64,000 nt of DNA from Rubrobacter aplysinae. Its GTDB lineage: Bacteria; Actinomycetota; Rubrobacteria; Rubrobacterales; Rubrobacteraceae. A program made the translations under genes and the position numbers. Shown in pieces: positions 35,943 to 52,177 of this stretch; the first letter of the stretch is position 1, and each line of letters opens with the position of its first letter. The stretch lies in the NCBI RefSeq assembly GCF_001029505.1, contig NZ_LEKH01000009.1, positions 1 to 64,000 of the forward strand, in the 5' to 3' direction. The notes under the pieces are model-generated. The model made no database searches and was not told the origin of the DNA. It worked only from the letters and a program-made list of their open reading frames with translations.

Positions 35943-37394
35943 CTACGAATAGTCCAGTTTCGCCATTACGTGCTTGATCACGGTGTAGTCCTCCAAAGAG
36001 TAGGCGGACATGTCGTTGCCGTAGCCGGACTGCTTGATGCCCCCGTGCGGCATCTCGGAGGCGAGGTTGGTGTGCTCGTTGACCCATACCGTACCGGAGC
36101 GTAGCCTGCGCGCCGTCTCCAGGGCCCGGCCCACCCTCTCGGACCATACGGAGGCCGTAAGACCGTACGAGAGCCCGTTGGCCAGCCGTAGAGCCTCCTC
36201 GTCGCTACCGAAGCTCTGGACCGTGATCAGGGGCCCGAAGGCCTCTTTCCGTACTATCTCGGCGTCCTGCCCCACGTCCGCCACGACGCTGGGCGCGTAG
36301 AAGAAGCCCGGCCCATCGGACGGCTCACAGCCGGCTAGCACGCTGGCCCCCTCCTCTACCGCGCGCTCGGCGAAACCGGCCACCTTGTCCCGGTGCGCGG
36401 CAGAGACCAGCGGCCCCATGTCCACGTCCCCACCGGAGAGCGGGTCGCCGAGGGAGATCTCCCCGACCTTCGATAGCAGCTCGGAGACGAACTCCTCGTA
36501 GACCCGCTCGTGTACCAGGACCCTGGCCGCCGCCGTACAGTCCTGGCCACTGTTGTAGAAGGACGATCCGCATATTCCGGCGGCCGCGGTCTGTATCTCC
36601 GCGTCGTCGAAGACCAGCGCCGGAGCCTTGCCCCCGAGCTCCAGGTGGGCCTTTTTGACCGTCTCCGCCGCCGCCGCGGCCACCTTCTTGCCGGTGCCCA
36701 TGTCTCCCGTCAGGGAGACCATGTCGACGCCCGGGTGGCCCACCAGGCCGGTCCCGACGGGATCTCCCCTGCCCGTCAGCACGTTAAACACCCCCGGGGG
36801 GAAGATGTCCGCGGCGAGCTCGGCCACCCGGAGCGCGCTCAAGGGGGTAAGCTCGGAGGGCTTCAGGACGACGGTGTTCCCCGCCGCGAGGGCCGGGCCT
36901 ATCTTCCAGGCCAGCATCAGCAGCGGGTAGTTCCAGGGGGCGATGGAGGCGACGACGCCGACGGGCTCGCGCCGGATCATGCTGGTAAAGCCCCGGGCGT
37001 ACTCGCCGGCGGACTTCCCCTCCGGCACGCGCGCCGCGCCGGCGAAGAACCTCAGGTTATCCGCCGAGAACTCTACATCTCCCATCGCCACCGGCCACGG
37101 CTTGCCCACGTTCATGGACTCCAGCCGGGCAAGCTCCTCGCCGTTACCCTCGATGCGATCCGCGAGGGTCAGCAGCATCCGGGAGCGCTCGGCGGGCGTC
37201 GTGTCGAACCACGTCTTCTCGAATGCCTCCCGGGCGCTCTCGACGGCGCGATCCACCTCCCTCCGGGTCCCGCTCGGCACCTCCGCGATGATCTCACCAG
37301 TGCTGGGGTTTAATGCGGGGTCGGTTTCATCCCCCGTGGCGGACAACCACCCACCGCCCACGAACGCTCCGGACTCAAAGGTTTTCTGCTGCAC
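35943..37394 (-). CDS. Aldehyde dehydrogenase, gamma-aminobutyraldehyde type
   Basis: 483 residues. The catalytic Cys is in YNSGQDCTAAARVLV and the general-base Glu in HLELGGKAPALVF; NAD-binding APWNYPLLM and SLTGDMGTGKKVA are present. The QDCTAA context is typical of aminobutyraldehyde dehydrogenases (PatD/YdcW, PuuC group). It would oxidise an amino- or acylamino-aldehyde to its acid with NAD. It is the last gene of the eleven-gene operon, 18 bp after the PLP decarboxylase, which fits an amine-to-aldehyde-to-acid sequence. Confidence 0.85.
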   Translation of the reverse strand: MQQKTFESGAFVGGGWLSATGDETDPALNPSTGEIIAEVPSGTRREVDRAVESAREAFEKTWFDTTPAERSRMLLTLADRIEGNGEELARLESMNVGKPWPVAMGDVEFSADNLRFFAGAARVPEGKSAGEYARGFTSMIRREPVGVVASIAPWNYPLLMLAWKIGPALAAGNTVVLKPSELTPLSALRVAELAADIFPPGVFNVLTGRGDPVGTGLVGHPGVDMVSLTGDMGTGKKVAAAAAETVKKAHLELGGKAPALVFDDAEIQTAAAGICGSSFYNSGQDCTAAARVLVHERVYEEFVSELLSKVGEISLGDPLSGGDVDMGPLVSAAHRDKVAGFAERAVEEGASVLAGCEPSDGPGFFYAPSVVADVGQDAEIVRKEAFGPLITVQSFGSDEEALRLANGLSYGLTASVWSERVGRALETARRLRSGTVWVNEHTNLASEMPHGGIKQSGYGNDMSAYSLEDYTVIKHVMAKLDYS

Positions 37395-37412: not shown

Positions 37413-38861
37413 TTAGGGTTCCAACCGCTGGCCGAGCTCCCGGATGACCTCTGGTACCAGGTCGATGTCCTCCGCCGTAGTCCTGAAGTTCACGAAGCAC
37501 ACCCGCAGGCAGGCGTGACCATTCACCGCCGCCGGCGCGAGGAAGACCCTTCCGTCGCGCATCATCTCTTCCGCGAGCCGGAGGTTATGGTTGTCGAGGT
37601 CCTCGGCTCCCTCCGGAATGTGGCGGAAGCAGAGGGTAGAGAGCATGGGCTCGTGCAGGAGCTCGAAGTCCGGGAGTGCCCGGAGCATCCCGGCGAGCCG
37701 GCGGGCGTTGTCCAGGGTGCGTTCGATCCAGATCCGGTACTGCCCGGCCCCGTGGACCCGCAGCGCCATCCAGAGCCTCAGGGAGCGCAGCGGCCGCGAG
37801 TACTCCAGAGTGCGGTCCACCGGGTTCGCCACGTCCCCCTCGTGCAGCATGTACCGTTCCTCGTGGCCAAAGGCCGCCCGTAGACGCCCGGTCTCCCGCA
37901 GGAGGACGACGCTACAGCTCTTCTGCACCCCGAGCCACTTGTGCGCGTCGAGGGTGGCGGAGTCGGCGCGATCCAGACCCTCGAAGAGCGGCGCCGCGCT
38001 CGGCGCGGCCGCCCCCGGCAGCCCGTAGGCGCCGTCTACGTGCAGCCACACTCCGTGGCGGGAGCACACGTCGGCGATGGAGCCCAGCGGGTCCACCGCC
38101 CCCGTTAGCGTCGTACCCGCCGTCGCCACCGCCGCCACGGGCGTGATCCCGTCCGCAACGTCCGAGGAGAGCGCCCGTTCGAGAGCGTCGGGCCGCAGGC
38201 GGTGCCGGTCGTCGGCGGGGATGGCGCGGACCGCCGAGCTTCCCAGACCACACACCTCCACGGCCCGGACCACGGAGTGGTGGGACTCCTCGGAGCAGTA
38301 CACCGCCGCCCGGCCCCCGACCCCGTTCGCGCGAGTGCCCGGCATCGCCGCCTCGCGCGCGGCGAGCAGCGCCGTGAGGTTCGAGGTCATGCCGCCGCTG
38401 GTGAACGCACCCTCGGCGAGCGGGAAGCCCACGAGCTCCGCGACCCAGTGCAGGGCCTGGTCCTCGATAAGGTCCGCCCCACCCGCCGTGACGGCGAGGT
38501 TAACGTCGTAGGTGGCAGCCAGGGCAGAGGCCAGCACCCCGACCTCAAGCCCGGTAGAGCCGATGTAGCCTAGATAAAGCGGCCGGGAGGGCGAGACGCT
38601 GGCGTCCAGCACGCGCGCGGCGTCCCGGAGGGCCACCTCGGCGTCGCCGGAGCCCTCGGGCAACGACGCCCTCAGGCGAGCCGCCAGGGACTCGTCCAGC
38701 TCGGGCTCCGAGGCGCGGGGATGGTCGAAAGACTCCCAGGCCTCTGAGATGACCCGCTCCAGGCTACCCAGCACGCCCTCGCGGTCGGCCAGCGCCGGTA
38801 GCTCCTCCTGCTCGTGCTGGGGACCCTCCCCCAGACGCCGCTCCCTGTCTCGGTCGCTCAC
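37413..38861 (-). CDS. Group II PLP-dependent amino-acid decarboxylase
   Basis: 482 residues. The PLP lysine is Lys308 in DAHKWLGVQKS, the ring-stacking histidine is in SEESHHSVVRA (about 195) and the pyridine-N Asp is Asp276 in LHVDGAYG. GAFTSGGMTSNLTAL is the phosphate-binding start. The group covers aromatic amino acid, glutamate and diaminobutyrate decarboxylases; the layout resembles the aromatic type most. Its product would be a primary amine. It overlaps the APC permease by 4 bp, suggesting that the imported amino acid is the substrate. Confidence 0.85.
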   Translation of the reverse strand: MSDRDRERRLGEGPQHEQEELPALADREGVLGSLERVISEAWESFDHPRASEPELDESLAARLRASLPEGSGDAEVALRDAARVLDASVSPSRPLYLGYIGSTGLEVGVLASALAATYDVNLAVTAGGADLIEDQALHWVAELVGFPLAEGAFTSGGMTSNLTALLAAREAAMPGTRANGVGGRAAVYCSEESHHSVVRAVEVCGLGSSAVRAIPADDRHRLRPDALERALSSDVADGITPVAAVATAGTTLTGAVDPLGSIADVCSRHGVWLHVDGAYGLPGAAAPSAAPLFEGLDRADSATLDAHKWLGVQKSCSVVLLRETGRLRAAFGHEERYMLHEGDVANPVDRTLEYSRPLRSLRLWMALRVHGAGQYRIWIERTLDNARRLAGMLRALPDFELLHEPMLSTLCFRHIPEGAEDLDNHNLRLAEEMMRDGRVFLAPAAVNGHACLRVCFVNFRTTAEDIDLVPEVIRELGQRLEP

Positions 38862-40396
38862 TTATCCTCCCTCTGGGGGAAACCGGCGTTCGCCCCCTCT
38901 CCGACGGCGGCGAAGACCTCGGGGCGTCGGCGCTTTAGCAGGCTCCCCACGAGCAGGCCCACGAGACCGCCGCCGAACAGTATTACCGGAAGTACCACGG
39001 CCATCGTGTTCAGGGGTGCGTCGGTGGCGCCCGTGATGAGCACGTTGAAGTTCGTCACCCCGAGGATGAGCACGACCGTCAGTAGTACACCGGCTATGGC
39101 CGGGGCCACCGCGGAGGACCAGCGGCTCAACCCGGTTTCCGGACGGCGCCTGAAGTACCCGATCACCGCGAAGGACGTTATGGACATGAGAAGCAGCACG
39201 CCTAGGGCGCCGAGGTTGGTCAGCCAGGTAAACAGCGTCAGTACGGGATCCGCCGCGGCTAGGGCGAAGATGAGGACTATCGTGAGCGCGAGCGCGGACT
39301 GTGCCAGCGAGGCCACCCAGGGCGCACCGGAACCGGCGCGCACGCTGCCGAACGCCCTCGGGACCACGCCCTCGCGCCCCAGCGCGAACATGTAGCGGGC
39401 CACCGCATTGTGGAAGGAGAGTAGCGCCGCGAAAAGGCTGGTGGCGAACAGAAGAGACGCGGAGGTGCCCCAGATCTGGCCGAGCCGTTCGGCGCCGGCC
39501 ACGAACAGCACGGTCGTCGGGTCGGGCTCGCCGCCCGCCGTGAACCCGGCCTCCACCATCGCGCCGGGGTCTACCATCGTGGCCGGACCCGCGGCTATGC
39601 CCAACAGCCAGCTAGAGAACGCGTAGAAGACAGCGATGAGCCCGACGGCGATGAATGTCGCCCGCGCCACGGTGCGTCGTGGATCCCGGACCTCCTCGCT
39701 GTAGATCGCCGCCGACTCGAAGCCGACGAACGAGGCGGCGCAGAAGGTGAGCGTCGCACCCGCGGCCGCGCCGAAGGCTATCGTCGGATCGAAGCCGAGC
39801 AGGCTAAAGCCCTGGGGTCCGGGCTCGGCCAGTATCGAGAGGTCGAACAGGGCTACTATTAGCACCTCCAGCACCAGCACCACGGCCAGCACGCGGGCGT
39901 TGAGGTCTATCCGCAATACCCCGAGCGTGGCTATGATGCCGATGCACATTAAACACCACAGCCACCAGGGGGCCGTGATGCCGAGGATGCTGGACATGGA
40001 GGAGCCGAAGGCGACGCCGAACAGCCCGTAGATGCCGAGCTGCATGCTGTTGTACGCGATCAGGGCCACGAAGGCCGCCCCGACGCCGTACACCTTGCCG
40101 AGCCCCTTGGAGACGTAGGAGTAGAACGCCCCCGCGTTGGTGACGTGACGGCTCATGGCCGCGTATCCGATCGCGAAGAGGGCCAGGATTATGCCCAGCG
40201 GTATGAACATGAACGGCACGGCGCGGTTGCCCGTCACCAGGTAGGTCGCGGCCTGTCCGCCGGCGACGGCGGTCAACGGCGCCGAGGCCGCGACGATGAA
40301 GAACACGAGGTCCGGCACCCCCAGCGCCCGCCGCTGCAGCCCTCCACTTCCCGTCTCCCCGCCACTCCTAGGCGTCTTCGATTCCGTGGCTGACAA
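38858..40396 (-). CDS. APC-family amino acid permease
   Basis: 512 residues with 12 helices. The start is TTG 40396 with GGGAG 6 bases upstream, 17 bp after the M20 gene; a longer open frame overlaps that gene and is Arg-rich. Signature parts: FFIVAASAPLTAVAGGQAAT, GAFYSYVSKGLGKVYGVGAA, AASFVGFESAAIYSEEVRDP and ARYMFALGREGVVPRAFG. APC permeases bring in amino acids or amines. Tightly placed before the decarboxylase. Confidence 0.87.
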   Translation of the reverse strand: MSATESKTPRSGGETGSGGLQRRALGVPDLVFFIVAASAPLTAVAGGQAATYLVTGNRAVPFMFIPLGIILALFAIGYAAMSRHVTNAGAFYSYVSKGLGKVYGVGAAFVALIAYNSMQLGIYGLFGVAFGSSMSSILGITAPWWLWCLMCIGIIATLGVLRIDLNARVLAVVLVLEVLIVALFDLSILAEPGPQGFSLLGFDPTIAFGAAAGATLTFCAASFVGFESAAIYSEEVRDPRRTVARATFIAVGLIAVFYAFSSWLLGIAAGPATMVDPGAMVEAGFTAGGEPDPTTVLFVAGAERLGQIWGTSASLLFATSLFAALLSFHNAVARYMFALGREGVVPRAFGSVRAGSGAPWVASLAQSALALTIVLIFALAAADPVLTLFTWLTNLGALGVLLLMSITSFAVIGYFRRRPETGLSRWSSAVAPAIAGVLLTVVLILGVTNFNVLITGATDAPLNTMAVVLPVILFGGGLVGLLVGSLLKRRRPEVFAAVGEGANAGFPQREDK

Positions 40397-40413: not shown

Positions 40414-41685
40414 TTAGACCTTCACCAAGCCGCACCAGTCCCGGACGAAGAGCCCGAGCGCCTGCGCGGTCTCGACGACGGAGCCGAGCGAAACCCGCTC
40501 GTCTATGCCGTGTATCTGCTCGGCCCGGGGGCCGAAGCACACCGCCGGTATCCCCTCCCGCACGAAGTGGCGGGCGTCCGTCGTGGCGGTGGTCGGTATC
40601 AGCGGCGGCCGCTCCCCGTGCAGCCGCTGGTAGGCCCCGGCCAGCGCATCCGCCACGGGCACCTCTCCACCGAGAACAAACCCCTCGCAGGAGAAGCCGT
40701 CGTAACGGACGCGGGGCGGGTTCTCCGCCAGGCGCGGAGAGTTCCGCGCGGCCTCGGCGACGGTCTCCTCGACCAGGGTGCGCAGCTCTCCGGGGTCCTG
40801 GCGCGGGTAGAGGCCGAGCCGGTACGAAACCGTGCAGGAGGCCGCGACGGTCGAGGGCCAGTCGCCGCCCGAGATCACACCCGGGTTCAGGTTGATGGGG
40901 TGCTCAAACGTGTCGTACGGGGCCGGCGGGTCCTCGTTAAGCCTCTCCTCCAGCCGTCTTAGCGCCTGCAGCACGTCTCCGGCGGCCTCTATGGCGTTGA
41001 ACCCGAGCCGGCTGGCGCGGGCCGCGTGGGCCGGGACACCCGCGACGTCCACGTGGAACCACAGCACGCCGACCTGGGCAATGGTTATGTGGTCGGGGTG
41101 CGGCTCTGTAATGACGCAGGCATCTGCCCGCGAGCCGTCGAGCAAGCACTGCAAGGTGCCGTGACCCGTGCACTCCTCCTCCACGACCGACTGGAGCTGG
41201 ACGGGGGCCGCGGGCGCATACCCGGCCCGGCCGAGCGCCCGCACCACGCCGGTCATCGTGGCCAGCCCGGCTTTCATGTCCCCGGCACCGCGGCCGTACA
41301 ACCAGTCGCCGTCGCGCACCGCCTCGAACGGCGGGTGGGTCCAGAGGCTCTCCTCGGCGGGCGGTACCACGTCTATGTGGCCGTTCAGGATCAATGAGCG
41401 GCCCCCGTCCGTGACGGGCTCCCAGTCGGCGACGACGTTGCGTTTGCCCTCGACCTCCCAGCCAAACGGCGAGGCCCCCGGCGCGGCGCGCAGGGCCTCC
41501 TCGTCGAGCGGCACGTCGCGGGTATCCAGGCCGCACTCGGCGAACGCGGCCTGTATCAGGCGTTGTCCGGCCTCCTCGTCGCCCAGCGTGGTCGGGGCCT
41601 CGACGAGCCGGGCCAGCAGATCCTCCATCCAGCCCCTCTCGGCGGAGACCGCGTCGAGGACGGCCTCGTCGCTCACCTCGTTCAT
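40414..41685 (-). CDS. M20-family deacylase/carboxypeptidase
   Basis: 423 residues from ATG 41685, which overlaps the ALDH stop (ATGA). Zinc-site motifs are LILNGHIDVVPPAEE, YGRGAGDMKAG and VVEEECTGHGTLQ; the final ligand region is near GIPAVCFGPRAEQIHGIDE. Enzymes of this subgroup (ArgE/DapE/ACY1) hydrolyse N-acyl amino acids or related amides. In this operon it might remove an acyl or glutamyl group from a pathway intermediate. An open frame extends far upstream to 42279 but is antisense-like Arg/Pro-rich sequence inside the ALDH gene. Confidence 0.85.
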   Translation of the reverse strand: MNEVSDEAVLDAVSAERGWMEDLLARLVEAPTTLGDEEAGQRLIQAAFAECGLDTRDVPLDEEALRAAPGASPFGWEVEGKRNVVADWEPVTDGGRSLILNGHIDVVPPAEESLWTHPPFEAVRDGDWLYGRGAGDMKAGLATMTGVVRALGRAGYAPAAPVQLQSVVEEECTGHGTLQCLLDGSRADACVITEPHPDHITIAQVGVLWFHVDVAGVPAHAARASRLGFNAIEAAGDVLQALRRLEERLNEDPPAPYDTFEHPINLNPGVISGGDWPSTVAASCTVSYRLGLYPRQDPGELRTLVEETVAEAARNSPRLAENPPRVRYDGFSCEGFVLGGEVPVADALAGAYQRLHGERPPLIPTTATTDARHFVREGIPAVCFGPRAEQIHGIDERVSLGSVVETAQALGLFVRDWCGLVKV

Positions 41686-43148
41686 CCCACGCTGCCCTCC
41701 AGGATCTGGAGCGTCTTCAGCTCGGAGTAGAAGTCCAGGGCGTAGTCGCCGCCCTCGCGGCCGATGCCGGAGATGTCCATGCCGCCAAAGGGCGCGGTGA
41801 GGTCGCGGACGAGGAAGGTGTTGACCCACACTATGCCCGCGCGCACCTGCCGGCCCACGCGGTCGGCCCGGCCGAGCGAGGTGGTGTAGAGGACGCCCGA
41901 GAGGCCGTACTCGGTGGAGTTCGCGAGCGCCACGGCCTCCTCCTCCTCGGAGAAGGTCTGGAAGGTCAGCACGGGGCCGAAGACCTCGCTCTGAACGATC
42001 TCGGCGTCGTTCGAGGTCGGCTCGATCAGGGTCGGCTCGTAGAAGAGCGGGCCCGCCTCTGATCGCCGGCCGCCGCGGACTATCCTGTGGCCCTCGGCGC
42101 GGGCGCGCTCGACGAAGCCCTCGACACGTTGCAGGTGCTCGGGATGGATGAGCGGCGAGATGGTGGTCGAGTCCTCGCGGGGGTCGCCGAGCACCTGCTC
42201 GTCCAGATAGCGGTGGAACTTCTCCAGAAACTCGTCGGCGACGGACTCCTGCACTATTAGGCGCGTCCCTGCCAGACACACCTGCCCGGAGTCATCGTAC
42301 TGGCCGGCGGCCTTGCGGGCCGCTGCGTCGAGGTCCGCGTCCTCGAAGACGATTAGCGGCCCCTTTCCTCCCATCTCGGCGGTGAACGGCACGAGATTTC
42401 GGGCTGCTGCGACCCCGATCTGACGCCCCGCCTCGGGAGAGCCCGTGAAGGAGACACGCTTTAGCAGCGGGTGGGAGACCAGCGAGGCCCCGACCTCCTC
42501 GCCGTAGCCTTGGAGCACGTTGAACACTCCGGGCGGGAACCCGGCCTCGGCGGCGAGCTCGGCGAGTATCGAGCACGAGAGCGGCGACCACTCGGCGGGC
42601 TTTAGCACGACGGTACAGCCTGCGGCGAGCGCCGGGGCCGTCTTCCAGGTCGAGAGCATGAAAGGCGCGTTCCAGGGCGTGATCACGGCCGCGGGTCCGG
42701 CGGGCATCCGCTGCACCCGGTTCCAGGTGCCTAAAGAGTGCCAGTCGCGCTCCTCGTAGGCGGTGGCGAGATCCGCATAGGAGCGGAAGTTTTTAGCGCC
42801 GCGCGAGATCACCCGCGCCCGCAACGACCTTAGGAGCATCGCCATGTCGGCGTTCTCGACCGCGGCGAGCCGCTCCACGTTCTCGTCTATAAGGTCGGCC
42901 AGCCGGTGGATGTACCCGGCGCGTCCGGCGGGCCCGAGCGCGGCCCACCCGGGGAACGCCTCGTTCGCGGCCTGGACCGCTTGGTCCGCCTCCCTCTCGC
43001 CGCCGCGCGATACCTCGGCGATCACACCGGCGTCTATCGGGGAGACGTCCTCGAAGCGGGACTGGCTGGCAACCCGCTCCCCGCCGATGAAGTGGTCCGG
43101 GGAGACCTCGACACCGGCGACCTCTACCCGCCCAGTAACGGAGCTCAC
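41682..43148 (-). CDS. Aldehyde dehydrogenase, HpaE-like semialdehyde type
   Basis: 488 residues. The catalytic Cys lies in DDSGQVCLAGTRLIV and the Glu in FTAEMGGKGPLIVF. TPWNAPFMLSTWKTAPALAA and FTGSPEAGRQIG bind NAD. The GQVCLAGTR context is typical of HpaE/DmpC-type dehydrogenases, which oxidise the semialdehyde formed by extradiol ring cleavage. The neighbours (an extradiol dioxygenase and an HpaG-like protein) support that role. It overlaps the ADC-like gene by 4 bp. Start is GTG. Confidence 0.86.
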   Translation of the reverse strand: MSSVTGRVEVAGVEVSPDHFIGGERVASQSRFEDVSPIDAGVIAEVSRGGEREADQAVQAANEAFPGWAALGPAGRAGYIHRLADLIDENVERLAAVENADMAMLLRSLRARVISRGAKNFRSYADLATAYEERDWHSLGTWNRVQRMPAGPAAVITPWNAPFMLSTWKTAPALAAGCTVVLKPAEWSPLSCSILAELAAEAGFPPGVFNVLQGYGEEVGASLVSHPLLKRVSFTGSPEAGRQIGVAAARNLVPFTAEMGGKGPLIVFEDADLDAAARKAAGQYDDSGQVCLAGTRLIVQESVADEFLEKFHRYLDEQVLGDPREDSTTISPLIHPEHLQRVEGFVERARAEGHRIVRGGRRSEAGPLFYEPTLIEPTSNDAEIVQSEVFGPVLTFQTFSEEEEAVALANSTEYGLSGVLYTTSLGRADRVGRQVRAGIVWVNTFLVRDLTAPFGGMDISGIGREGGDYALDFYSELKTLQILEGSVG

Positions 43149-43948
43149 GCGAAGTCCTTTACTACTTCGAGGTCGTCCACGGTGTAGCCGAAGGTGAGCC
43201 TGTAGCCCCGGTCTACCTCTACCGGGGCCAGGGTATGGTGCTCTTCGCCGGGGGCCGGGTAGAGGTTCAGCGTGGCCGGCCCGGTCATTACCTTGGACAC
43301 CTCCCGATCCCGGCTTACGGCGCGGACCAGCTCGTGTACCTGGGGCTCGTCGTGGCGTCCGGCGGTCAGGCGCGGGAAGTAACGCATGTTTACGATGGGC
43401 GGATCGTTGTGCTTTGGCCCCCCCTCACTCTCGCCCTCTATGGTTAGCGTCATGTCGGACATGGCTCGTCCGTTTGCCGAGCAGGTCGCGCCGTGACGGG
43501 CTCCGGGGCGGAGGCCGGGATCGGCGGTGAGACTCGTGCCGAAGGTCCGGGTCATCCAGATCTCGCCTAGCTTTTTGGGGAAGCCCTGGATCCAACCCCG
43601 CGCCAGCGCGAAGTCCTGGTCCACCCAGATAAACGGGCAGGTCGTGACCTCCTCGCCGTCCAGCAGGGCGTTGATCACGATAAAGTATTCCCGGTAATGC
43701 GATCGCACTGGATCCAGCAGCTCCTCACCGCCCTCCGAGCACGACTGCCAGTCCGCGCAGACGGCGGCGCAGCGCCCTGCGTCCGGATGGGGCTCCAGTC
43801 CCTCGGGCAGCACCGCCAGAACCGCGTCCGGGTCTGCCCAGTAGTCCACTACCAAAAAGTCGCCGACGTAGTGCCAGGGTGGCGGCTGGGTGATACTGGC
43901 CCGGCCGGTGGCGGTTCTGGGTACGGTAAAGCCCTGCAGGCTGCTCAT
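43145..43948 (-). CDS. Acetoacetate decarboxylase-fold protein
   Basis: 267 residues. The ADC family core reads CPFIWVDQDFALARGWIQGF then PKKLGEIWMTRTFG; Lys125/Lys126 correspond to the adjacent lysines of acetoacetate decarboxylase, where the first forms the Schiff base. Members include decarboxylases, aldolases and hydratases. Between the ring-cleaving dioxygenase and the semialdehyde dehydrogenase it may decarboxylate or isomerise a keto acid in the pathway. It starts in the stop of the dioxygenase gene and ends overlapping the ALDH start. Confidence 0.82.
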   Translation of the reverse strand: MSSLQGFTVPRTATGRASITQPPPWHYVGDFLVVDYWADPDAVLAVLPEGLEPHPDAGRCAAVCADWQSCSEGGEELLDPVRSHYREYFIVINALLDGEEVTTCPFIWVDQDFALARGWIQGFPKKLGEIWMTRTFGTSLTADPGLRPGARHGATCSANGRAMSDMTLTIEGESEGGPKHNDPPIVNMRYFPRLTAGRHDEPQVHELVRAVSRDREVSKVMTGPATLNLYPAPGEEHHTLAPVEVDRGYRLTFGYTVDDLEVVKDFA

Positions 43949-44868
43949 CAGATAACCTCCGTGGGTAGCGATTGACCTTGCATCTCCAGGCTCTCGCGCT
44001 CGGACTCGACCGCGGCGTCGTCGAAGCGGAAGTAGGAGCGGGGCGGTAGCGGACCCCAGGTATTGGACGAGTAGCGGTTGTCGGGCCAGACTCGCGGCTC
44101 GCGCTCGGCCTCTAGCTGCTCCATGTCACAGTACAGCTCGACGAAGCATTCCTCCTCGACGATGCGCACGTAGGAGGCGATGTTGCCGCCGACGCCGTGG
44201 CGCACGGGGCCCCAGCCGAGCCACCTTCCGTGACGCCCGAGATGGTCCAGGGCGACCCGCATCTGGCCGACGTCCACGACGTCGAAGGCGAGATGGTGGA
44301 AGTGGCTGTAGCCCTTGTCCACCAGAGCCATCACGTGATGGTCACCGTTTATGTTGAACCACACGCCGCCGCTGCCGAGCCAGTCGGTAACCTCCATGCC
44401 GAGAACCTGCGTATAGAACTCGACCCCGGTGGAGATCTCCGCCGTCAGAAAGTTGACGTGCCCGAGCTTGCGGGGGTGTCCCACGGCCTGATCCCGGGCC
44501 GGGCGCGCCTGCGGCGTCCAGCGTGACTCCGGCTCCCGGTAGGGCAGCACGAGCACGCCGTTGCCCTCCGGGTCCGAGACCCGGAGCCCGCCGTCACGCT
44601 CCTCGTATCCAACCCCGAGCCCCTCGAAGTGGCTCCGGGCGTCCTCCAGGGTGCACGAGCGCCGCAGCTCGTAGGCGACGTGCTCGACTCCGGGGGCGTC
44701 GCCCACGAGGAGCTCCAGAGAGAAGGGCTCGTCGTCGCAGGCGAGCCGCACGCGGTGATCGTCGCGTTCGCGCTCGACGAGCCCGAACTCCCTGCACCAG
44801 CGGTGGGAAGCGTCTTCGAGGCCGGTGATGCGCAGGCTGACGTGATCTATGCGGCGGAGTGAGATCAC
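43948..44868 (-). CDS. VOC-family (type I) extradiol ring-cleavage dioxygenase
   Basis: 306 residues, two VOC domains. The catalytic C-terminal domain has the 2-His-1-Glu iron site: His137 (KLGHVNF), His191/192 (FHHLAFD) and Glu244 (FVELYCD). WGPVRHGVGGN near 219-229 supplies the second-sphere His of catechol 2,3-dioxygenases and homoprotocatechuate 2,3-dioxygenase. It would open a catechol-type ring next to the hydroxyls using O2 and Fe(II) (or Mn). Its start overlaps the P450 stop (ATGA). Confidence 0.85.
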   Translation of the reverse strand: MISLRRIDHVSLRITGLEDASHRWCREFGLVERERDDHRVRLACDDEPFSLELLVGDAPGVEHVAYELRRSCTLEDARSHFEGLGVGYEERDGGLRVSDPEGNGVLVLPYREPESRWTPQARPARDQAVGHPRKLGHVNFLTAEISTGVEFYTQVLGMEVTDWLGSGGVWFNINGDHHVMALVDKGYSHFHHLAFDVVDVGQMRVALDHLGRHGRWLGWGPVRHGVGGNIASYVRIVEEECFVELYCDMEQLEAEREPRVWPDNRYSSNTWGPLPPRSYFRFDDAAVESERESLEMQGQSLPTEVI

Positions 44869-46115
44869 GCTTTGACCCGCACGGGCAGCCGCTTGATACC
44901 GTTGAAGAAGTTGGAGCGCAGGCGCTCGGGCGGACCGGCAAGCTCCAAATCTACGGTGCGCTTGAGAAGCTCCTCGAAGGCCACGCGAACCTCCAGGCGC
45001 GCCAGGTGGGCGCCCAGACAGAAATGCTTGCCCCCGGGGCCGAAGGTCATGTGCCCCACGTGCCGGCTCGGCTCCCGGCCGATGTCGAAGGTGCCCGGGT
45101 CCTCGAAGACGGTCTCGTCGTAGTTGCCCGAGGTGAACCAGGTCGTGACCTTGGCGCCGGCCGGTATCTCCGTGCCCGCAAGCTCCGTGTCACAGGTCGT
45201 GGTGCGCCGGAAGTGGTGTACCGGGGTAGCCCAGCGCAACATCTCCTCGGCGGCCGACGAGTGCAGCGAGGGGTCCTGACGCAACCGTTCGAGCTGCTCC
45301 GGATGCTCCAGCAGGGCGAGCAACCCGTGGGTGATGGTGTGACGGGTGGTCTCGTTACCGGCGGTCGCCAGCAACACGAAGTTCACGTCGTACTCCCGCT
45401 GGGTGAGGCCCCCGAACGCGAGCTGGGTTATGATGTCGTTCCTCTGGTCGTGCCGACGCTCCTCGGCGATCTTGCGCCCGAACTCGAACATCTCCTGCGC
45501 CGCCGGGCTGGAGAAAGGCAGGAGGCGATGCGCATCGTCTTCAAAAGTATGGGCGTACTCGGGGTCCTGGCCGCCGAGAATTCGGTCGCCAAGCTCGATA
45601 ATGTAGCGGCGCTCCTCTTGCGGTACGCCCAGGATCTCGGCAAAGACCTGCATGGGGATCTCCGAGGAGATCTGCTCGACAAAGTCGAACTCGCCCCTGG
45701 GTAGCGCCAGGTCCAGTACCTCCTGGGTGACCCTACGGACCTGATTCTCCCACTCCTTCACCGCCCGCGGGGCGAAGCGGCTCTTGATGAGCCCCCGGAT
45801 CTCGTCGTGGCGCGGCGGGTCCAGGTCGATCATGGACTTCCGGGCCTCGATCTGGTCCGGTTCGAGATCCTCTAGCGAGGTCCCGCCGACCTCACTGGAG
45901 TAGATGTCCCAGTGCCGGTGAACCTCGCGGATGTCCTCGTAGCGGGTCACGGCCCAGAAGCCGGGGCCGTCTGGCTCGGGGTTGAAGCAGACCGGGGCCT
46001 CCTGGCGTAAGGTGCGGAACCACTCGTAGGGGACCCGCTCGACGAAGGCGTCGGGGTCCGAGAGGTCTATATCCTCCAGCGGTACGGTCTCGGGTACACC
46101 CGTCTTGTCTGTCAT
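44865..46115 (-). CDS. Cytochrome P450
   Basis: 416 residues. The haem cysteine is Cys366 in FGPGGKHFCLGAHLAR, with the one-residue-longer loop known from the CYP124/125/142 group. The I-helix has ATAGNETTRHT for O2 activation, and the ExxR pair lies in EEMLR. The C-terminal RLRSNFFNGIKRLPV also fits that group. It likely hydroxylates an intermediate. No ferredoxin or reductase gene is adjacent, so electrons must come from elsewhere. AGGAGGTTAGTGA precedes ATG. It lies 11 bp after the GS-like gene. Confidence 0.9.
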   Translation of the reverse strand: MTDKTGVPETVPLEDIDLSDPDAFVERVPYEWFRTLRQEAPVCFNPEPDGPGFWAVTRYEDIREVHRHWDIYSSEVGGTSLEDLEPDQIEARKSMIDLDPPRHDEIRGLIKSRFAPRAVKEWENQVRRVTQEVLDLALPRGEFDFVEQISSEIPMQVFAEILGVPQEERRYIIELGDRILGGQDPEYAHTFEDDAHRLLPFSSPAAQEMFEFGRKIAEERRHDQRNDIITQLAFGGLTQREYDVNFVLLATAGNETTRHTITHGLLALLEHPEQLERLRQDPSLHSSAAEEMLRWATPVHHFRRTTTCDTELAGTEIPAGAKVTTWFTSGNYDETVFEDPGTFDIGREPSRHVGHMTFGPGGKHFCLGAHLARLEVRVAFEELLKRTVDLELAGPPERLRSNFFNGIKRLPVRVKA

Positions 46116-46126
46116 TCACTAACCTC

Positions 46127-47470
46127 CTACAGGTGGTGCAGGTACTCTGTTATCTCCCAGTCCGAGACCCACGTGCGGTGACGCTCGGCCTCGAAGCGCT
46201 TGACGGTGAGGAACGTGTCCACTATCTCCGTCCCCATCGCTTCCCGCAGCACCTCGTCCGCCTCTAGCGCGTCCAACGCCTCTTCCAGGGTGTGGGGCAG
46301 CGGCGCGCCGGCCTGCTCCTCGCTCAGGGTGTAGGCGTCGCCGCCCACCGGGGGGCCGAGCGGCAGCTTCTCGCGTACGCCGTGCAGACCGGCGAACAGT
46401 ATTGCGGCGACGACGAGGTAGGGGTTTGCGCTACCATCTCCCACCCGGACCTCGACCCGCGTGGCCCCGCCGCGCTCGGGCGGCACCCGGACGAACGACG
46501 TGCGGTTGTCCCAGCCCCAGTTGACGTTGGTGGGCGCCAGAGAGTCTGGTACGAGCCGCCGGTACGCGTTGATAGTCGGGTTCAGGAAAGCCGTCAGCCC
46601 CGTACCGTGGGCCAGAATCCCGGCGATGAAATGGCGGAGCTCCTCCGACACGCCATTCTCGTCTTCACCGTCGGCGAAAGCGTTATCCCCTTCTCGCCCG
46701 AGAGAGAAATGGACGTGGAAGCCAGAGCCGCCCTGATCGTTGAACGGCTTGCCCATAAAGGTGGCCATGAGGCCGTTGAGCGCGGCGACGTCCTTTACCG
46801 CCGCCTTGAGGCGGAAGGCGCGGTCGGAGACCGTAAGAGCCTCGCCGTGGTCCAGGTTGATCTCGTACTGCGAGTTCATGAACTCGTGGAAAGCGGCGAA
46901 GGTACCCATGCCCGAGTCGGATAGCGACTCGGCGATCCGGCGCACCACCCCTTGCGGGTCCGCCTGCGGCCCCACCGTGTACACCATGCTCAGGTTGTCC
47001 ACGTAGCGGCACATCCCGTTCGGCGACTCCGGGTCGGGCCTGCACAAAAAGAACTCCATCTCCGGCGCCACGACCGGCGACAGGCCGAGCTCTTCGAAGC
47101 CTGCTATAGCCCGTCTGACCGCCCCACGCGGGTTGGGCGGCTCGGGATGGTCCCCGACCGGGTACAGGTCGGCGATGCAGCATGCCAGGCCCGGCTCCCA
47201 GGGGACGAGCGTCATCGTCGAGAGGTCGGGGTACGCGATGAGATCTGGGTAGCCTTCCTCCCCGCCCCGCACGGGAGTATGCCGCAGGTCGGTGCCCATG
47301 ACCGACGAGCAGAAACCCAGCCCGTGCTCTATGGCGCGCTCGAACTCCTTTACCGGCACGTCCTTGCCGCGGGGCACGCCGTGCAGGTCTGCGTAGAGCA
47401 CGCGCACGGAGCTCACGTCATGCTCCGAAAACTCCGGGTAACGTGCCGTTATCCCTTCCTTTTGAACCAC
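46127..47470 (-). CDS. Glutamine synthetase-like ligase (gamma-glutamylamide synthetase type)
   Basis: 447 residues. It contains an N-terminal beta-grasp part (VRVLYADLHGVPRGKDVPV) and the GS catalytic domain: APEMEFFL, GSGFHVHFSLG, NPTINAYRRLVPDSLAPTNV, and EVRVGDGSANPYLVVAA. Members outside nitrogen assimilation attach glutamate to amines (PuuA with putrescine, IpuC with isopropylamine, TdnQ/AtdA1 with aniline). With a class I amidotransferase 2 bp upstream and a P450 11 bp downstream, ligation of an amine to glutamate is more likely than glutamine synthesis. Start GTG with AAAGGAG 5 bases away. Confidence 0.85.
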   Translation of the reverse strand: MVQKEGITARYPEFSEHDVSSVRVLYADLHGVPRGKDVPVKEFERAIEHGLGFCSSVMGTDLRHTPVRGGEEGYPDLIAYPDLSTMTLVPWEPGLACCIADLYPVGDHPEPPNPRGAVRRAIAGFEELGLSPVVAPEMEFFLCRPDPESPNGMCRYVDNLSMVYTVGPQADPQGVVRRIAESLSDSGMGTFAAFHEFMNSQYEINLDHGEALTVSDRAFRLKAAVKDVAALNGLMATFMGKPFNDQGGSGFHVHFSLGREGDNAFADGEDENGVSEELRHFIAGILAHGTGLTAFLNPTINAYRRLVPDSLAPTNVNWGWDNRTSFVRVPPERGGATRVEVRVGDGSANPYLVVAAILFAGLHGVREKLPLGPPVGGDAYTLSEEQAGAPLPHTLEEALDALEADEVLREAMGTEIVDTFLTVKRFEAERHRTWVSDWEITEYLHHL

Positions 47471-47472
47471 CG

Positions 47473-48195
47473 TTACTCCTTTCCGCCGGCGTCGCCGGCT
47501 GATTTCCCGGTACGGTGCGCCGCCACGATGGAAGCGAAGGCGTCGAAAAGCTCGAAGGCGTCGCCGCGGGCGGCTTGTTTGCGCTGATGCGTCGCTTCTA
47601 AGAGAGGCCGCCAGTCATCGATCCCCATCTCCGCCAGACGCTCGGTGTCTAGCCCCGCCCAGCCGGAGACTATCTCCACGGTGCTCTCCGGGTGGAACTG
47701 GACCCCGAGATGAGGACCTATCCTGAACGCCTGAACGGCCGTATCCGTCCGTGCGATCTCCGCCGCGTCCGGGGGCGTGGTAAAGCTGTCGTAGTGCCAC
47801 TCCAGCCAGGGTCCGGCGGGAACGGTGGACGGGTCGTCGGTCTGGATCTCACACCATCCGAGCTCCGGCTCTGGCGAGCGCTCCACGCGACCGCCGAGCA
47901 CCGTGGATAACACCTCCCCGCCAAAGCACAGGCCGAGCACCGGGACCTCGCCATCCACGGCCCGCCGGATTAGCTCTATCTCTCTTACGACCGCGGGCAC
48001 GTGTACGTCGTTGGGGTTACAGGCCGAACCGAGAGACGCCACGAAAGCATAGTCGGTGGGATCCGGCGCCTCGCTCTCGTCGTAGGAAAGCTGAACCTCG
48101 AAAGCAATGCCGCGCTCGTGCAGCCAGTCCTCCAGTATCCCCGGCGGCGTTATGTCACCGTGCTGGCGAATAAGAACGGGCTTCCCCGTGTTCAC
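47473..48195 (-). CDS. Class I glutamine amidotransferase-like hydrolase
   Basis: 240 residues. The triad is Cys90 (LGLCFGGE), His168 and Glu170 (GVQFHPES). Stand-alone class I amidotransferase-like proteins next to GS-like ligases hydrolyse gamma-glutamyl amides (PuuD) or assist aniline glutamylation (TdnT/AtdA2). Placed directly before the GS-like gene, it is the probable partner that makes or breaks the gamma-glutamyl bond. Start is GTG with GGAGG 7 bases upstream. Confidence 0.85.
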   Translation of the reverse strand: MNTGKPVLIRQHGDITPPGILEDWLHERGIAFEVQLSYDESEAPDPTDYAFVASLGSACNPNDVHVPAVVREIELIRRAVDGEVPVLGLCFGGEVLSTVLGGRVERSPEPELGWCEIQTDDPSTVPAGPWLEWHYDSFTTPPDAAEIARTDTAVQAFRIGPHLGVQFHPESTVEIVSGWAGLDTERLAEMGIDDWRPLLEATHQRKQAARGDAFELFDAFASIVAAHRTGKSAGDAGGKE

Positions 48196-49230: not shown

Positions 49231-49249
49231 AATGTATAAATTATTCATT
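49231..49249. promoter_or_regulatory. Palindromic operator between the operon and its GntR regulator
   Basis: AATGTATAAATTATTCATT is a near-perfect palindrome centred at 49240 (one mismatched pair). It lies 35 bp before the FAH start and about 70 bp before the GntR start in an otherwise short AT-rich divergent promoter. Related strings (ATGTATCC at about 49292 and ATCCATGTAT near 49316) sit between it and the regulator. It is the best candidate binding site for that regulator. Confidence 0.6.
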
Positions 49250-49319
49250 CTCTGCTGACGTGTCAAGTTGGTTACAGGAGAAATTTGCACAATGTATCCA
49301 GAATTCGTATTATTTATCC

Positions 49320-50042
49320 ATGTATAGAGCCTCACACCCCCCCGAAGATGGGCAGCATCTCCGGATCGACTCTGTGGTGGATCTTGCTTACGGGCGCATC
49401 CGGGCCGTGGTTCTTAGCGGCGAGTTGGCTCCGGGCACTAAGCTCAGGCAGGTGGAGCTTGCCGAGCGGTTGGGGATCTCGCGGACTCCGGTACGGGAGG
49501 CGCTCCTCCGGCTATCTGCCGAAGGGCTGGTAGAGCCACTTGCAAACCGGGGGTTTCGTGTCGCGGATCTAGGCATAGATGCGGTGCTGCGACGTCTGGA
49601 GGTCAGAGCCATTCTGGAGCCGCGCATAGCGGGGCTCGCCGCCGAGCGCAGGACCGAGCGTGATCTGGAAAATCTTGACGCAGCCATCGTACGTGAGGAG
49701 CAGGCTACCAACGGGATAGCCGCGCACGATGCGAGTCGTGAGTTCCACGTCGAGCTTGCACGAGCTGCCCACAACGACGAACTGCTCCGGGTCCTGGAGT
49801 CCCTTTGGTTAGTGGAGGTCGGACGTCGGTTGCTTTCGCGACGCTGGGTGGTCTCTGAGTGGCCCGCCGAGGACATAGAAGACCACCGTGTGATCATGGA
49901 GGCCGTGGCAGATCAGAAGGTCGAAGAGGCGGCACGCCTTGTAGCTGAGCATGTCAGTGGCGCCGTGGATCACTGGGATTCTGATCTCTACGTGAGCGAG
50001 ACATCTCCTGGCCCACCGGACGTCACAGACGGTGCTCACTAG
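49320..50042 (+). CDS. GntR-family regulator (FadR/FCD subgroup)
   Basis: 240 residues from ATG 49320; a GTG at 49260 would add 20 residues over the promoter and is less likely. The winged helix (about 18-80) has AYGRIRAVVLSGELAPGTKL and LAERLGISRTPVREALLRLS. The FCD effector domain (about 95-220) has metal-site histidines in SREFHVELARAAHND and EDHRVIMEAV. It is transcribed away from the eleven-gene operon across the palindrome, the usual arrangement of a local regulator released by a pathway acid. Confidence 0.87.
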   Translation: MYRASHPPEDGQHLRIDSVVDLAYGRIRAVVLSGELAPGTKLRQVELAERLGISRTPVREALLRLSAEGLVEPLANRGFRVADLGIDAVLRRLEVRAILEPRIAGLAAERRTERDLENLDAAIVREEQATNGIAAHDASREFHVELARAAHNDELLRVLESLWLVEVGRRLLSRRWVVSEWPAEDIEDHRVIMEAVADQKVEEAARLVAEHVSGAVDHWDSDLYVSETSPGPPDVTDGAH

Positions 50043-50537: not shown

Positions 50538-52052
50538 TCACATACCATCAGGGGAAAAACGTATAGTGCAAACATGGCGCAGATTTTCAGGGGAGACATC
50601 ACCAACATAGACGTAGAGTTCATGGTGGGGAGAAAGATAGAAGCGATTACCCTCGGGATCAACAACCGCGCTAGGAGCATCGATGAAGCGGCTATATTCC
50701 TCAAAGGGCAGAGATTCAAGAGTCGACACGATCTCGGAGAAATCTCCCGGGTCTATAACATCCTTAGGGATGAGATCTAGAGAGAGGGAGTGCTCTTCTA
50801 AGGTAGAGCTATTGTAGGGTTCCCCACGTTCCTCCGTGGCCCTCACCTCTCCCGAACCGCCGTTACGTCTAGGGAAGTCATCCTCCTGAGACTCTGGGGT
50901 ATTATGCGACAGAGGAGTTTCGGGCTCTCCTACCACAGGGTCGTTTTCTTGAGGAAGATCGCGGGAGGATGCAGGCGGGAGATCAAGATCGTAGCCGTTT
51001 TCGATGGCTTTACGCAACCAGCCCGCGGGGTTACGGACGTTACGCTGATGAGGTAGAGCCTCGACGTATTGCATTATCCTCCCAGGCCCATATGAGGCCA
51101 CCATTGTCTCCGCAGTATCGGCGGACATGCCTTCGGCCTTGAGGCGTTGTATGCAGAAGATCTCATCTTTGCTCAGGGACTCGGACTGTATCGCGCGTCG
51201 TTCCTGGTAAGAACTGGAGATCTTGTACACTGCATACTCTTTATCATTGCTTTTCCGGTAGCTGACATCCTCTAGAAACTCCTGAGCCATCAGCTCGGAG
51301 TGAGCCGGGGCAAGCTTCTCCTTTATCTTCGAGGCATACCGGTAGTCACTGAGAGGTATACGGTCTTTCAAAGAGAACAGCTCGGCCTCCCAGGTACGAC
51401 GCCCAGCTCGCTTCTTGTCTATAAGGCGGTACAAGCGCTTGGCGATCGGGCTCGACAATGACCAATAGAACCTGCTGTCGATGTTTTTGAGGTAGTTCGC
51501 CTGGTAGGACTCCAGAAAGTAGTTACTAAGGAGCACCGCATTGCGGTCTGTTCTATGACCGTCGGGATCCTCATACTCTGCAAGCTTCACCTGCGAAAGT
51601 AGGCTGAAGCTGTCCGAGATATAGCGCTTTTTACCTCCATGATAGAAAGCATTGTGGCTCTCGATGGTAGTAGAGGACATACGGAGCAGGGAGTCCCTGA
51701 CTTGCCGATAATCTCTACCGGAATGTCCTCTCCCCATGAGCTCGACCAGCTCGTAGATCGAGAAGCTTAACCACCCGTTCGCTGGAAGGCCGCGCTCGTC
51801 GATGAGTTGCAGGAGCGCAACGTACACGTCCTGGTCAAAACGGCCTGGTAATCCCCTCCCCATCGCTGCTCTGACTACCCAGGACTGCTCGAGGATGTGC
51901 CCCTCCCGAGTACGAAGTTCGTTCTCATACTGAAGAACTCCGGTACCCGCGTTACGGTCACCGACCCGAAAGTATGGGTGTTCCTCGAAGTTTCCCTCCG
52001 CAGGCACAAGACTCTTGCTGGTTCTGTGCTGTCTTCTGGGCTGCTGGCTCAT
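50538..52052 (-). CDS. repA: Plasmid replication initiator (RepA/RPA family)
   Basis: 504 residues from ATG 52052 with GGGAG upstream. The N-terminal half (about 40-290) carries the winged-helix initiator fold, including FSIYELVELMGRGHSGRDYR, QVRDSLLRMSSTTIESHNAF and RLYRLIDKKRAGRRTWEAEL. The C-terminal 170 residues are Glu/Ser/Pro-rich and less conserved. Such proteins bind iterons and open the origin. The iteron array begins 125 bp upstream of the start, so the protein probably also represses its own promoter. Confidence 0.87.
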   Translation of the reverse strand: MSQQPRRQHRTSKSLVPAEGNFEEHPYFRVGDRNAGTGVLQYENELRTREGHILEQSWVVRAAMGRGLPGRFDQDVYVALLQLIDERGLPANGWLSFSIYELVELMGRGHSGRDYRQVRDSLLRMSSTTIESHNAFYHGGKKRYISDSFSLLSQVKLAEYEDPDGHRTDRNAVLLSNYFLESYQANYLKNIDSRFYWSLSSPIAKRLYRLIDKKRAGRRTWEAELFSLKDRIPLSDYRYASKIKEKLAPAHSELMAQEFLEDVSYRKSNDKEYAVYKISSSYQERRAIQSESLSKDEIFCIQRLKAEGMSADTAETMVASYGPGRIMQYVEALPHQRNVRNPAGWLRKAIENGYDLDLPPASSRDLPQENDPVVGEPETPLSHNTPESQEDDFPRRNGGSGEVRATEERGEPYNSSTLEEHSLSLDLIPKDVIDPGDFSEIVSTLESLPFEEYSRFIDAPSAVVDPEGNRFYLSPHHELYVYVGDVSPENLRHVCTIRFSPDGM

Positions 52053-52177
52053 CAATATTCTCCCAATATTCCTTCTTTCTGTTGTTTAACAAAACAATAA
52101 ACAAGACAACATGTCTAACAGAGAGCGGAGCGTGATCTGAGAAAAAGGTTGATTTGCAGGAAAAAGCCAACGAGTTT

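What the first reader, a model, noticed from the sequence alone, without database searches (positions are those of the whole stretch)
46127..48195. Amidotransferase and GS-like ligase pair followed directly by a P450
The amidotransferase (Cys90, His168, Glu170) and ligase are 2 bp apart and the P450 follows after 11 bp. In aniline degradation the same pair is followed by a Rieske dioxygenase. Replacement by a P450 would mean that gamma-glutamylation presents the amine to a monooxygenase.
Basis: inference. Interest (0 to 1): 0.75.

Follow-up and report, generated by a model that had tools for sequence, protein, structure and literature searches.

The report
Glutamate-tagged aromatic amine degradation operon
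The three genes are the front end of an 11-gene operon that probably tags an aromatic amine (such as tyramine) with glutamate, lets a P450 oxidise its ring, opens the ring and ends in GABA, a combination of known enzyme types that I could not find described as one pathway.

Summary
In detail: on the minus strand a class-I amidotransferase (Cys90/His168/Glu170), a GS-like ligase (2 bp later) and a P450 (11 bp later). The ligase is not GlnA: its four ammonia-site residues are lost, its catalytic ones kept, and it groups with glutamyl-amine ligases.

The trio is the front of a likely 11-gene operon (49196 to 35943), followed by HpaD-, ADC/MppR- and HpaE-like enzymes, an M20 hydrolase, a permease, an aromatic-type amino-acid decarboxylase and an aminobutyraldehyde dehydrogenase, with an HpaG-like enzyme ahead. 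A palindrome lies between it and a divergent GntR gene.

Among 55 neighbourhoods of the ligase clade, 48 carry a P450 and 39 an extradiol dioxygenase (one of two unrelated folds, never both). Some carry PuuC- and PuuD-like enzymes; none has PuuB.

Best reading: an aromatic L-amino acid is decarboxylated, the amine gamma-glutamylated, the ring oxidised and meta-cleaved, releasing pyruvate and gamma-glutamyl-aminobutyraldehyde, then GABA and glutamate. The glutamyl group would keep the amine from cyclising on the ring-cleavage aldehyde.

Gamma-glutamylation feeding a P450 is already the published model for isopropylamine. New is its coupling to an arylamine meta-pathway. No substrate was tested.

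The parts
49260..50042 (+). GntR/FCD-family regulator, divergent from the operon
   Evidence: Pfam GntR 4e-17, FCD 3e-20; homologues sit at the same place in L014-L018, L021, L023 and others
49231..49249 (.). Palindrome AATGTATAAATTATTCATT between the GntR gene and the operon, likely operator
   Evidence: only match in the window at up to 3 mismatches, 0 in 100 shuffles; only site in the own genome at 0-1 mismatches; similar palindromes in the matching gap of L014, L015, L016, L018, L023
48327..49196 (-). FAA-hydrolase-fold enzyme, HpaG-like (isomerase/decarboxylase)
   Evidence: TIGR02303 HpaG-C-term 3e-66, below cut-off; linked in 39 of 55 loci
47473..48195 (-). Class-I glutamine-amidotransferase-fold hydrolase, probable gamma-glutamyl amide hydrolase
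   Evidence: Cys90/His168/Glu170 invariant 48/48; model pLDDT 91 matches GATases, gamma-glutamyl peptidase 1 and PuuD by fold
46127..47470 (-). GS-like ligase, probable gamma-glutamyl-(aryl)amine synthetase
   Evidence: Pfam Gln-synt_C 3e-102; separated from GlnA in the tree; ammonia-site residues replaced, metal/Glu/phosphate residues kept 58/58
44865..46115 (-). Cytochrome P450, CYP125/CYP124-related, own clade
   Evidence: Cys366, Thr256; 40.6% identical to CYP125A1; tree; Foldseek
43948..44868 (-). VOC-fold extradiol dioxygenase, HpaD-like
   Evidence: TIGR02295 HpaD 2.5e-27, below cut-off; candidate metal ligands His137, His191/192, Glu244 invariant 26/26
43145..43948 (-). Acetoacetate-decarboxylase-fold enzyme, MppR-like; proposed hydratase/retro-aldolase
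   Evidence: Pfam ADC 1e-53; MppR 4jm3 5e-51; Lys125 invariant 42/42
41682..43148 (-). Aldehyde dehydrogenase, HpaE-like
   Evidence: TIGR02299 HpaE 9e-156, best model, below cut-off
40414..41685 (-). M20-family (ArgE/DapE-type) amidohydrolase
   Evidence: NF005306 above cut-off; start taken at MNEVSDEA
38858..40396 (-). APC-family amino acid/amine permease (TTG start after AAGGGAGAG)
   Evidence: Pfam AA_permease_2 6e-21; start chosen from the sequence
37413..38861 (-). Group II PLP decarboxylase, probable aromatic L-amino acid decarboxylase
   Evidence: best solved relative DOPA decarboxylase 7xin 9e-61; PLP Lys308 invariant; substrate not settled
35943..37394 (-). Aldehyde dehydrogenase of the aminobutyraldehyde dehydrogenase subfamily
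   Evidence: NF010000 662 bits, above cut-off 615; 18 bp after the decarboxylase

Best explanation
The operon encodes catabolism of an arylethylamine. Proposed steps: (1) an aromatic L-amino acid, or its amine, enters by the APC permease and is decarboxylated (for example tyrosine to tyramine). (2) The GS-like ligase makes the gamma-glutamyl amide from glutamate and ATP. (3) The P450 converts the ring of the amide to a catechol (for example gamma-glutamyl-tyramine to gamma-glutamyl-dopamine). (4) The HpaD-like dioxygenase opens the ring beside the side chain. (5) The HpaE-like enzyme oxidises the semialdehyde. (6) The HpaG-like enzyme isomerises/decarboxylates. (7) The ADC/MppR-like enzyme hydrates and retro-aldol cleaves to pyruvate and gamma-glutamyl-4-aminobutyraldehyde. 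(8) The aminobutyraldehyde dehydrogenase gives gamma-glutamyl-GABA. (9) The amidotransferase-fold enzyme releases GABA and glutamate. The glutamyl group acts as a handle and as a protecting group that stops the free amine from cyclising onto the ring-cleavage aldehyde. Shown by sequence: the genes, the loss of the ammonia site, intact catalytic residues, conserved linkage. Inferred: every substrate, the order of steps, and the assignment of steps 7 and 9.
For: Ligase: D50, S53, Y179, E327 of GlnA become C, V, V, L across a 58-row clade while nine metal/Glu/phosphate residues are invariant; the genome's own GlnA keeps all four; tree. Linkage in 55 loci: P450 48, extradiol 39, ADC 43, HpaG 39, HpaE 37, decarboxylase 20, amidotransferase 33, PuuB 0, in changing gene order, in Actinomycetota and one Acidobacteriota contig. 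The VOC extradiol enzyme (24 loci) is swapped for a LigB-fold one (15), never both; the LigB one matches HpaD_Fe, so extradiol cleavage is the retained function. P450 redox partners lie in many clusters. Decarboxylases of three subfamilies have solved aromatic amino acid decarboxylases among their best relatives. PuuC-like ALDH and PuuD-like hydrolase sit with the ligase in L059, L110 and others; the L059 ALDH is 50.5% identical to E. coli PuuC. MppR acts as an aldolase, and a similar retro-aldol role was proposed in phenol meta-cleavage (PMC7820114). No HpaB in the own genome. A dedicated GntR-side palindrome.
Against: No substrate is known for any member. HpaD, HpaE and HpaG assignments are below the curated cut-offs. 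The decarboxylase is in about a third of loci and the PuuC/PuuD enzymes in fewer. The P450's relatives take sterols and isoprenoids. Several ligase-clade loci lack a P450 (L029, L043, L047, L059, L111, L117), and in L111 a VanA-type Rieske oxygenase lies beside the ligase, which could mean O-demethylation rather than hydroxylation. The own genome has a copper amine oxidase and an HpcH/HpaI-family protein on other contigs, so a conventional amine-oxidase route is not excluded.
Confidence: 0.6

Rival explanations
1. Same route, but the P450 removes an O-methyl group: the substrate is a methoxylated phenethylamine (such as 3-methoxytyramine) and the P450 is a demethylase that exposes the catechol.
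For: In L111 a VanA-type (vanillate O-demethylase family) Rieske oxygenase and a reductase lie beside the ligase, with no P450 detected there.
Against: VanA-type enzymes also do other monooxygenations; L111 lacks the extradiol module in the stretch read, so it may be another pathway; nothing in the window points to C1 handling.
Confidence: 0.15
2. An aniline-type pathway: the amine nitrogen is on the ring and the P450 takes the place of the Rieske dioxygenase.
For: The amidotransferase-ligase pair is shared with aniline-type clusters, e.g. Dietzia L065.
Against: Linked aromatic-type amino-acid decarboxylases, aminobutyraldehyde dehydrogenase and PuuC/PuuD-like enzymes have no role there; the aniline-type ligase is only a distant, long-branched neighbour in the tree.
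Confidence: 0.08
3. Two pathways side by side: gamma-glutamylation serves polyamine or short-chain amine use, while the Hpa-like genes degrade homoprotocatechuate made by ordinary oxidative deamination; the P450 acts on something else.
For: PuuC/PuuD-like enzymes occur near the ligase in some loci; a copper amine oxidase exists elsewhere in the genome.
Against: PuuB is absent from all 55 loci; no HpaB in the genome; the own genome has a second GS-like ligase next to a PuuD-like gene on another contig; the set stays together through rearrangement.
Confidence: 0.12
4. The P450 is an ordinary CYP125-type sterol or terpenoid hydroxylase that happens to sit in the operon.
For: Nearest solved relatives are CYP125 and CYP124; 40.6% identity to CYP125A1.
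Against: 48 of 55 linkage, correlated divergence with the ligase (r = 0.92), and clade-invariant residues absent from CYP125.
Confidence: 0.05

Closest known systems
Ipu pathway of isopropylamine (IpuC, P450/ferredoxin/reductase, amidotransferase), Paenarthrobacter aurescens TC1 and Pseudomonas KIE171
   Same: GS-like ligase, P450 and class-I amidotransferase in one cluster; P450 acts on the gamma-glutamyl amide and an amidotransferase-type enzyme is proposed to release the product (PMC6776027)
   Different: Aliphatic amine, no ring cleavage; the ligases are separate branches, the P450s only 31% identical
Aniline and 1-naphthylamine degradation (TdnQ/AtdA1/NpaA1 with a GATase and Rieske dioxygenase)
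   Same: Amidotransferase-ligase pair that activates an arylamine (PMC11335346; L065)
   Different: Dioxygenase removes the nitrogen; here a P450 plus meta-cleavage genes and a decarboxylase
Homoprotocatechuate (4-hydroxyphenylacetate) meta-cleavage pathway, HpaDEFGHI
   Same: HpaD-, HpaE- and HpaG-like enzymes
   Different: No HpaB in the genome; ADC/MppR-like enzyme in place of HpaH/HpaI in the cluster; amine kept through ring cleavage (inferred)
Puu pathway of putrescine
   Same: Gamma-glutamyl-aminobutyraldehyde and gamma-glutamyl-GABA as predicted late intermediates; PuuC/PuuD-like enzymes in some clusters
   Different: No PuuB in any of 55 loci; the aminobutyraldehyde would come from an aromatic ring
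PipA/MorA P450 clusters of cyclic amines in Mycobacterium
   Same: P450 in amine use; in Gulosibacter a glutamine synthetase gene (GMOLON4_438/3052) is numbered next to its bioI/pipA P450 genes and was overexpressed (PMC9477822)
   Different: Saturated N-heterocycles; the MorA/PipA sequences were not compared here

Membership tests
GlnA (true glutamine synthetase) | Ammonia-site residues Asp50, Ser53, Tyr179, Glu327 | tested here: not met
   C, V, V, L in the window and its clade
GlnA (true glutamine synthetase) | Groups with GlnA | tested here: not met
   separated by a 100% SH-aLRT branch from the own GlnA, E. coli GlnA and archaeal GS
GoaS (gamma-glutamyl organic amine synthetases) | GS fold, catalytic residues kept, ammonia site lost, groups with IpuC/PuuA/aniline ligases | tested here: met
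   quick tree with long reference branches
GoaS (gamma-glutamyl organic amine synthetases) | Ligates an organic amine, not ammonia | not testable with these tools
   needs enzyme assay
Class-I GATase-fold hydrolases | Cys-His-Glu triad | tested here: met
   48/48
Peptidase_C26 / PuuD | Closest to PuuD | tested here: not met
   PF00117 scores above PF07722; no convincing similarity to E. coli PuuD by blastp
CYP125 steroid 26-monooxygenase | At least 40% identity to CYP125A1 | tested here: inconclusive
   40.6% for the window, 31-41% for the clade
CYP125 steroid 26-monooxygenase | Conserved substrate-region residues | tested here: not met
   clade-invariant G176, P200, F201, P204, W326 differ; F-G loop insertion
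CYP125 steroid 26-monooxygenase | Oxidises sterol side chain | not testable with these tools
   needs binding titration
Homoprotocatechuate meta-cleavage (Hpa) | HpaD, HpaE, HpaG models above curated cut-off | tested here: not met
   best or near-best models but below cut-off
Homoprotocatechuate meta-cleavage (Hpa) | HpaB 3-hydroxylase in the genome | tested here: not met
   no PF03241 match
Aminobutyraldehyde dehydrogenase | NF010000 above cut-off | tested here: met
   662 vs 615 bits
Puu pathway | PuuB gamma-glutamylputrescine oxidase with the ligase | tested here: not met
   0 of 55 loci

The most novel reading that the evidence does not exclude
A previously undescribed, widespread actinobacterial route in which gamma-glutamate is kept as an amine protecting group from P450 ring oxidation through extradiol cleavage, turning aromatic-amino-acid-derived amines into pyruvate, glutamate and GABA, with an ADC/MppR-fold enzyme as the hydratase-aldolase.
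Probability: 0.5. Interest if true: 0.8.

Novelty: new variant of a known kind. Interest (0 to 1): 0.62.

Why it matters
It would link two separate chemistries, gamma-glutamyl amine activation and aromatic meta-cleavage, explain many genes annotated only as glutamine synthetase, P450 and acetoacetate decarboxylase (ligase clade in 41 of 397 sampled genomes of the phylum), suggest a biological use of glutamate as an amine protecting group during ring opening, and give a route from aromatic amines to GABA. Each step is testable with purified enzymes.

Tried and rejected
Annotated plasmid search for a named TdnQ/AtdA1 gave none; Dietzia L065 was used as an aniline-type stand-in on gene context only. 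Literature search for gamma-glutamyl-tyramine or -dopamine returned ten papers, none of them by title about bacterial breakdown of such amides. The 2002 Ipu paper and the 1999 PipA paper are not held, so the Ipu claim rests on PMC6776027. A flavin reductase beside the ligase in L034 suggested an HpaB-type hydroxylase; the candidate 557-aa neighbour is an Nramp transporter. The genes flanking the P450-less cluster L029 that were scanned are unrelated (ABC-F, UvrC, exopolyphosphatase). The ORF 40414-42279 was cut to 40414-41685 as its upstream part is not M20. The local PLP decarboxylase subfamily could not be given a substrate.

Full report
What is there. On the minus strand the window holds a class-I amidotransferase (48195..47473), a GS-like ligase (47470..46127) and a P450 (46115..44865), separated by 2 and 11 bp. 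The amidotransferase triad Cys90/His168/Glu170 is invariant in 48 aligned relatives.

The operon. Downstream genes overlap by 1-4 bp or are separated by at most 18 bp as far as 35943: an HpaD-like extradiol dioxygenase, an ADC/MppR-like enzyme, an HpaE-like dehydrogenase, an M20 hydrolase, an APC permease, a group II PLP decarboxylase and an aminobutyraldehyde dehydrogenase. Upstream, 131 bp away, is an HpaG-like gene, then a divergent GntR gene. The 19-bp palindrome AATGTATAAATTATTCATT (49231-49249) lies in between; it is the only match in the window at up to 3 mismatches and the only site in the genome at 0-1 mismatches (a second one has 2), and similar palindromes occur at the same place in L014, L015, L016, L018 and L023. 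Transcription as one unit is inferred from spacing.

The ligase is not a glutamine synthetase. The residues that bind ammonia in GlnA (D50, S53, Y179, flap E327) are C, V, V, L in the window and its clade, while all metal, glutamate and phosphate residues examined are invariant; the genome's own GlnA keeps all four. In a quick maximum-likelihood tree of 71 rows the ligase lies outside GlnA (100) on the side of IpuC, PuuA and an aniline-type ligase, inside a clade of its own (97, 49 rows). Reference branches are long, so its sister group is not settled.

Conserved company. The ligase clade was found in 10 of 40 genomes of the order and 41 of 397 of the phylum. In 55 neighbourhoods, some cut by contig ends: P450 48, ADC 43, extradiol 39, HpaG 39, HpaE 37, amidotransferase 33, decarboxylase 20, ferredoxin reductase 19, ferredoxin 18, PuuC/aminobutyraldehyde-dehydrogenase-like 11, PuuD-like 6, PuuB 0. 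These counts use similarity to seeds from the window and relatives, so loci found through the ligase favour close kin, and many rows are related. Gene order differs widely between groups. The extradiol enzyme is either the VOC or the LigB fold, never both; the LigB form in Kibdelosporangium matches HpaD_Fe. Pairwise identities of ligase and P450 correlate at 0.92 over 45 loci, as expected for joint inheritance; shared descent of whole genomes contributes to this.

The amine. Three decarboxylase subfamilies accompany the ligase. Their best or near-best solved relatives are DOPA decarboxylase (window), a non-canonical aromatic amino acid decarboxylase and two entries labelled only as decarboxylases (Crossiella), and 4obu followed by several aromatic amino acid decarboxylases (L120). 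From my own knowledge 5hsi and 7cwx are bacterial tyrosine decarboxylases and 4obu a tryptophan decarboxylase. PuuC- and PuuD-like enzymes sit with the ligase in S. lunaelactis plasmid pSLUN1 and L110, and singly elsewhere; the pSLUN1 dehydrogenase is 50.5% identical to E. coli PuuC. In the homoprotocatechuate pathway the final retro-aldol step releases the side chain as an aldehyde; with a CH2CH2NH-glutamyl side chain that product is gamma-glutamyl-4-aminobutyraldehyde, the PuuC substrate (chemical reasoning from the known pathway). This is the main ground for choosing an arylethylamine over an aniline.

The P450. Its nearest solved relatives by sequence and by predicted fold are CYP125 (including a reconstructed ancestor) and CYP124; it is 40.6% identical to CYP125A1 and other clade members 31-41%. 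The clade has invariant residues absent from CYP125 (G176, P200, F201, P204, W326; H301 in 56 of 60), with P200-P204 at the F-G loop/G-helix start in the model and H301 and W326 in strands near regions that in P450s contact substrate (location judged from the predicted secondary structure, no pocket was computed). Solirubrobacterales clusters encode a ferredoxin and reductase between HpaG and the amidotransferase gene. No HpaB exists in the genome. The reaction, hydroxylation or O-demethylation, is open; L111 has a VanA-type Rieske oxygenase beside the ligase.

The last steps. MppR of the ADC-fold family is an aldolase, and ADC-like proteins were proposed for the retro-aldol step of phenol meta-cleavage in Saccharolobus (PMC7820114); the lysine aligned with MppR's GMPK motif is invariant (Lys125, 42/42). 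The amidotransferase resembles GATases and, by fold, gamma-glutamyl peptidase 1 and PuuD; I assign it the release of glutamate, which is inference.

What was known. [quoted passage not shown] the two plasmid clusters of P. aurescens TC1 have ipuC, P450, ferredoxin and amidotransferase together. I found no description of the aromatic version in the papers held, which omit most subscription journals.

Limits. No substrate is known for any cluster member. HpaD/E/G names are below curated cut-offs. A copper amine oxidase and one HpcH/HpaI-family protein lie elsewhere in the genome, so an ordinary deamination route is not excluded.

Noticed in passing
window 49231-49249: Palindrome AATGTATAAATTATTCATT between GntR and the operon; similar palindromes in five Rubrobacter-type relatives, and in AATGnATACATTC form in some Solirubrobacterales.
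   Followed up: partly
window 50538-52055: RPA-type replication initiator protein (PF10134) beside the operon's regulator, suggesting a plasmid-derived stretch; an IS630-like transposase fragment follows at 54722-55153.
   Followed up: no
L111 11469-12482 and 10466-11452: VanA-type Rieske oxygenase and reductase next to the ligase in a genome region where no P450 was detected: a possible natural substitution.
   Followed up: partly
L060, L105, L106: Streptomyces-type clusters (one on a mobilizable plasmid with nearby integrases) carry a second P450 with its own ferredoxin and an F420-dependent LLM oxidoreductase.
   Followed up: no
L036 9205-9879 and L050 9177-9971: Shared protein of about 225 aa with no Pfam match, divergent from the ligase in Kibdelosporangium clusters that lack a recognised amidotransferase.
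   Followed up: no
own genome contig C16 32737-34424 (L003, L127): Second GS-like ligase directly followed by a PuuD-like gene, a probable separate gamma-glutamyl amine route.
   Followed up: no
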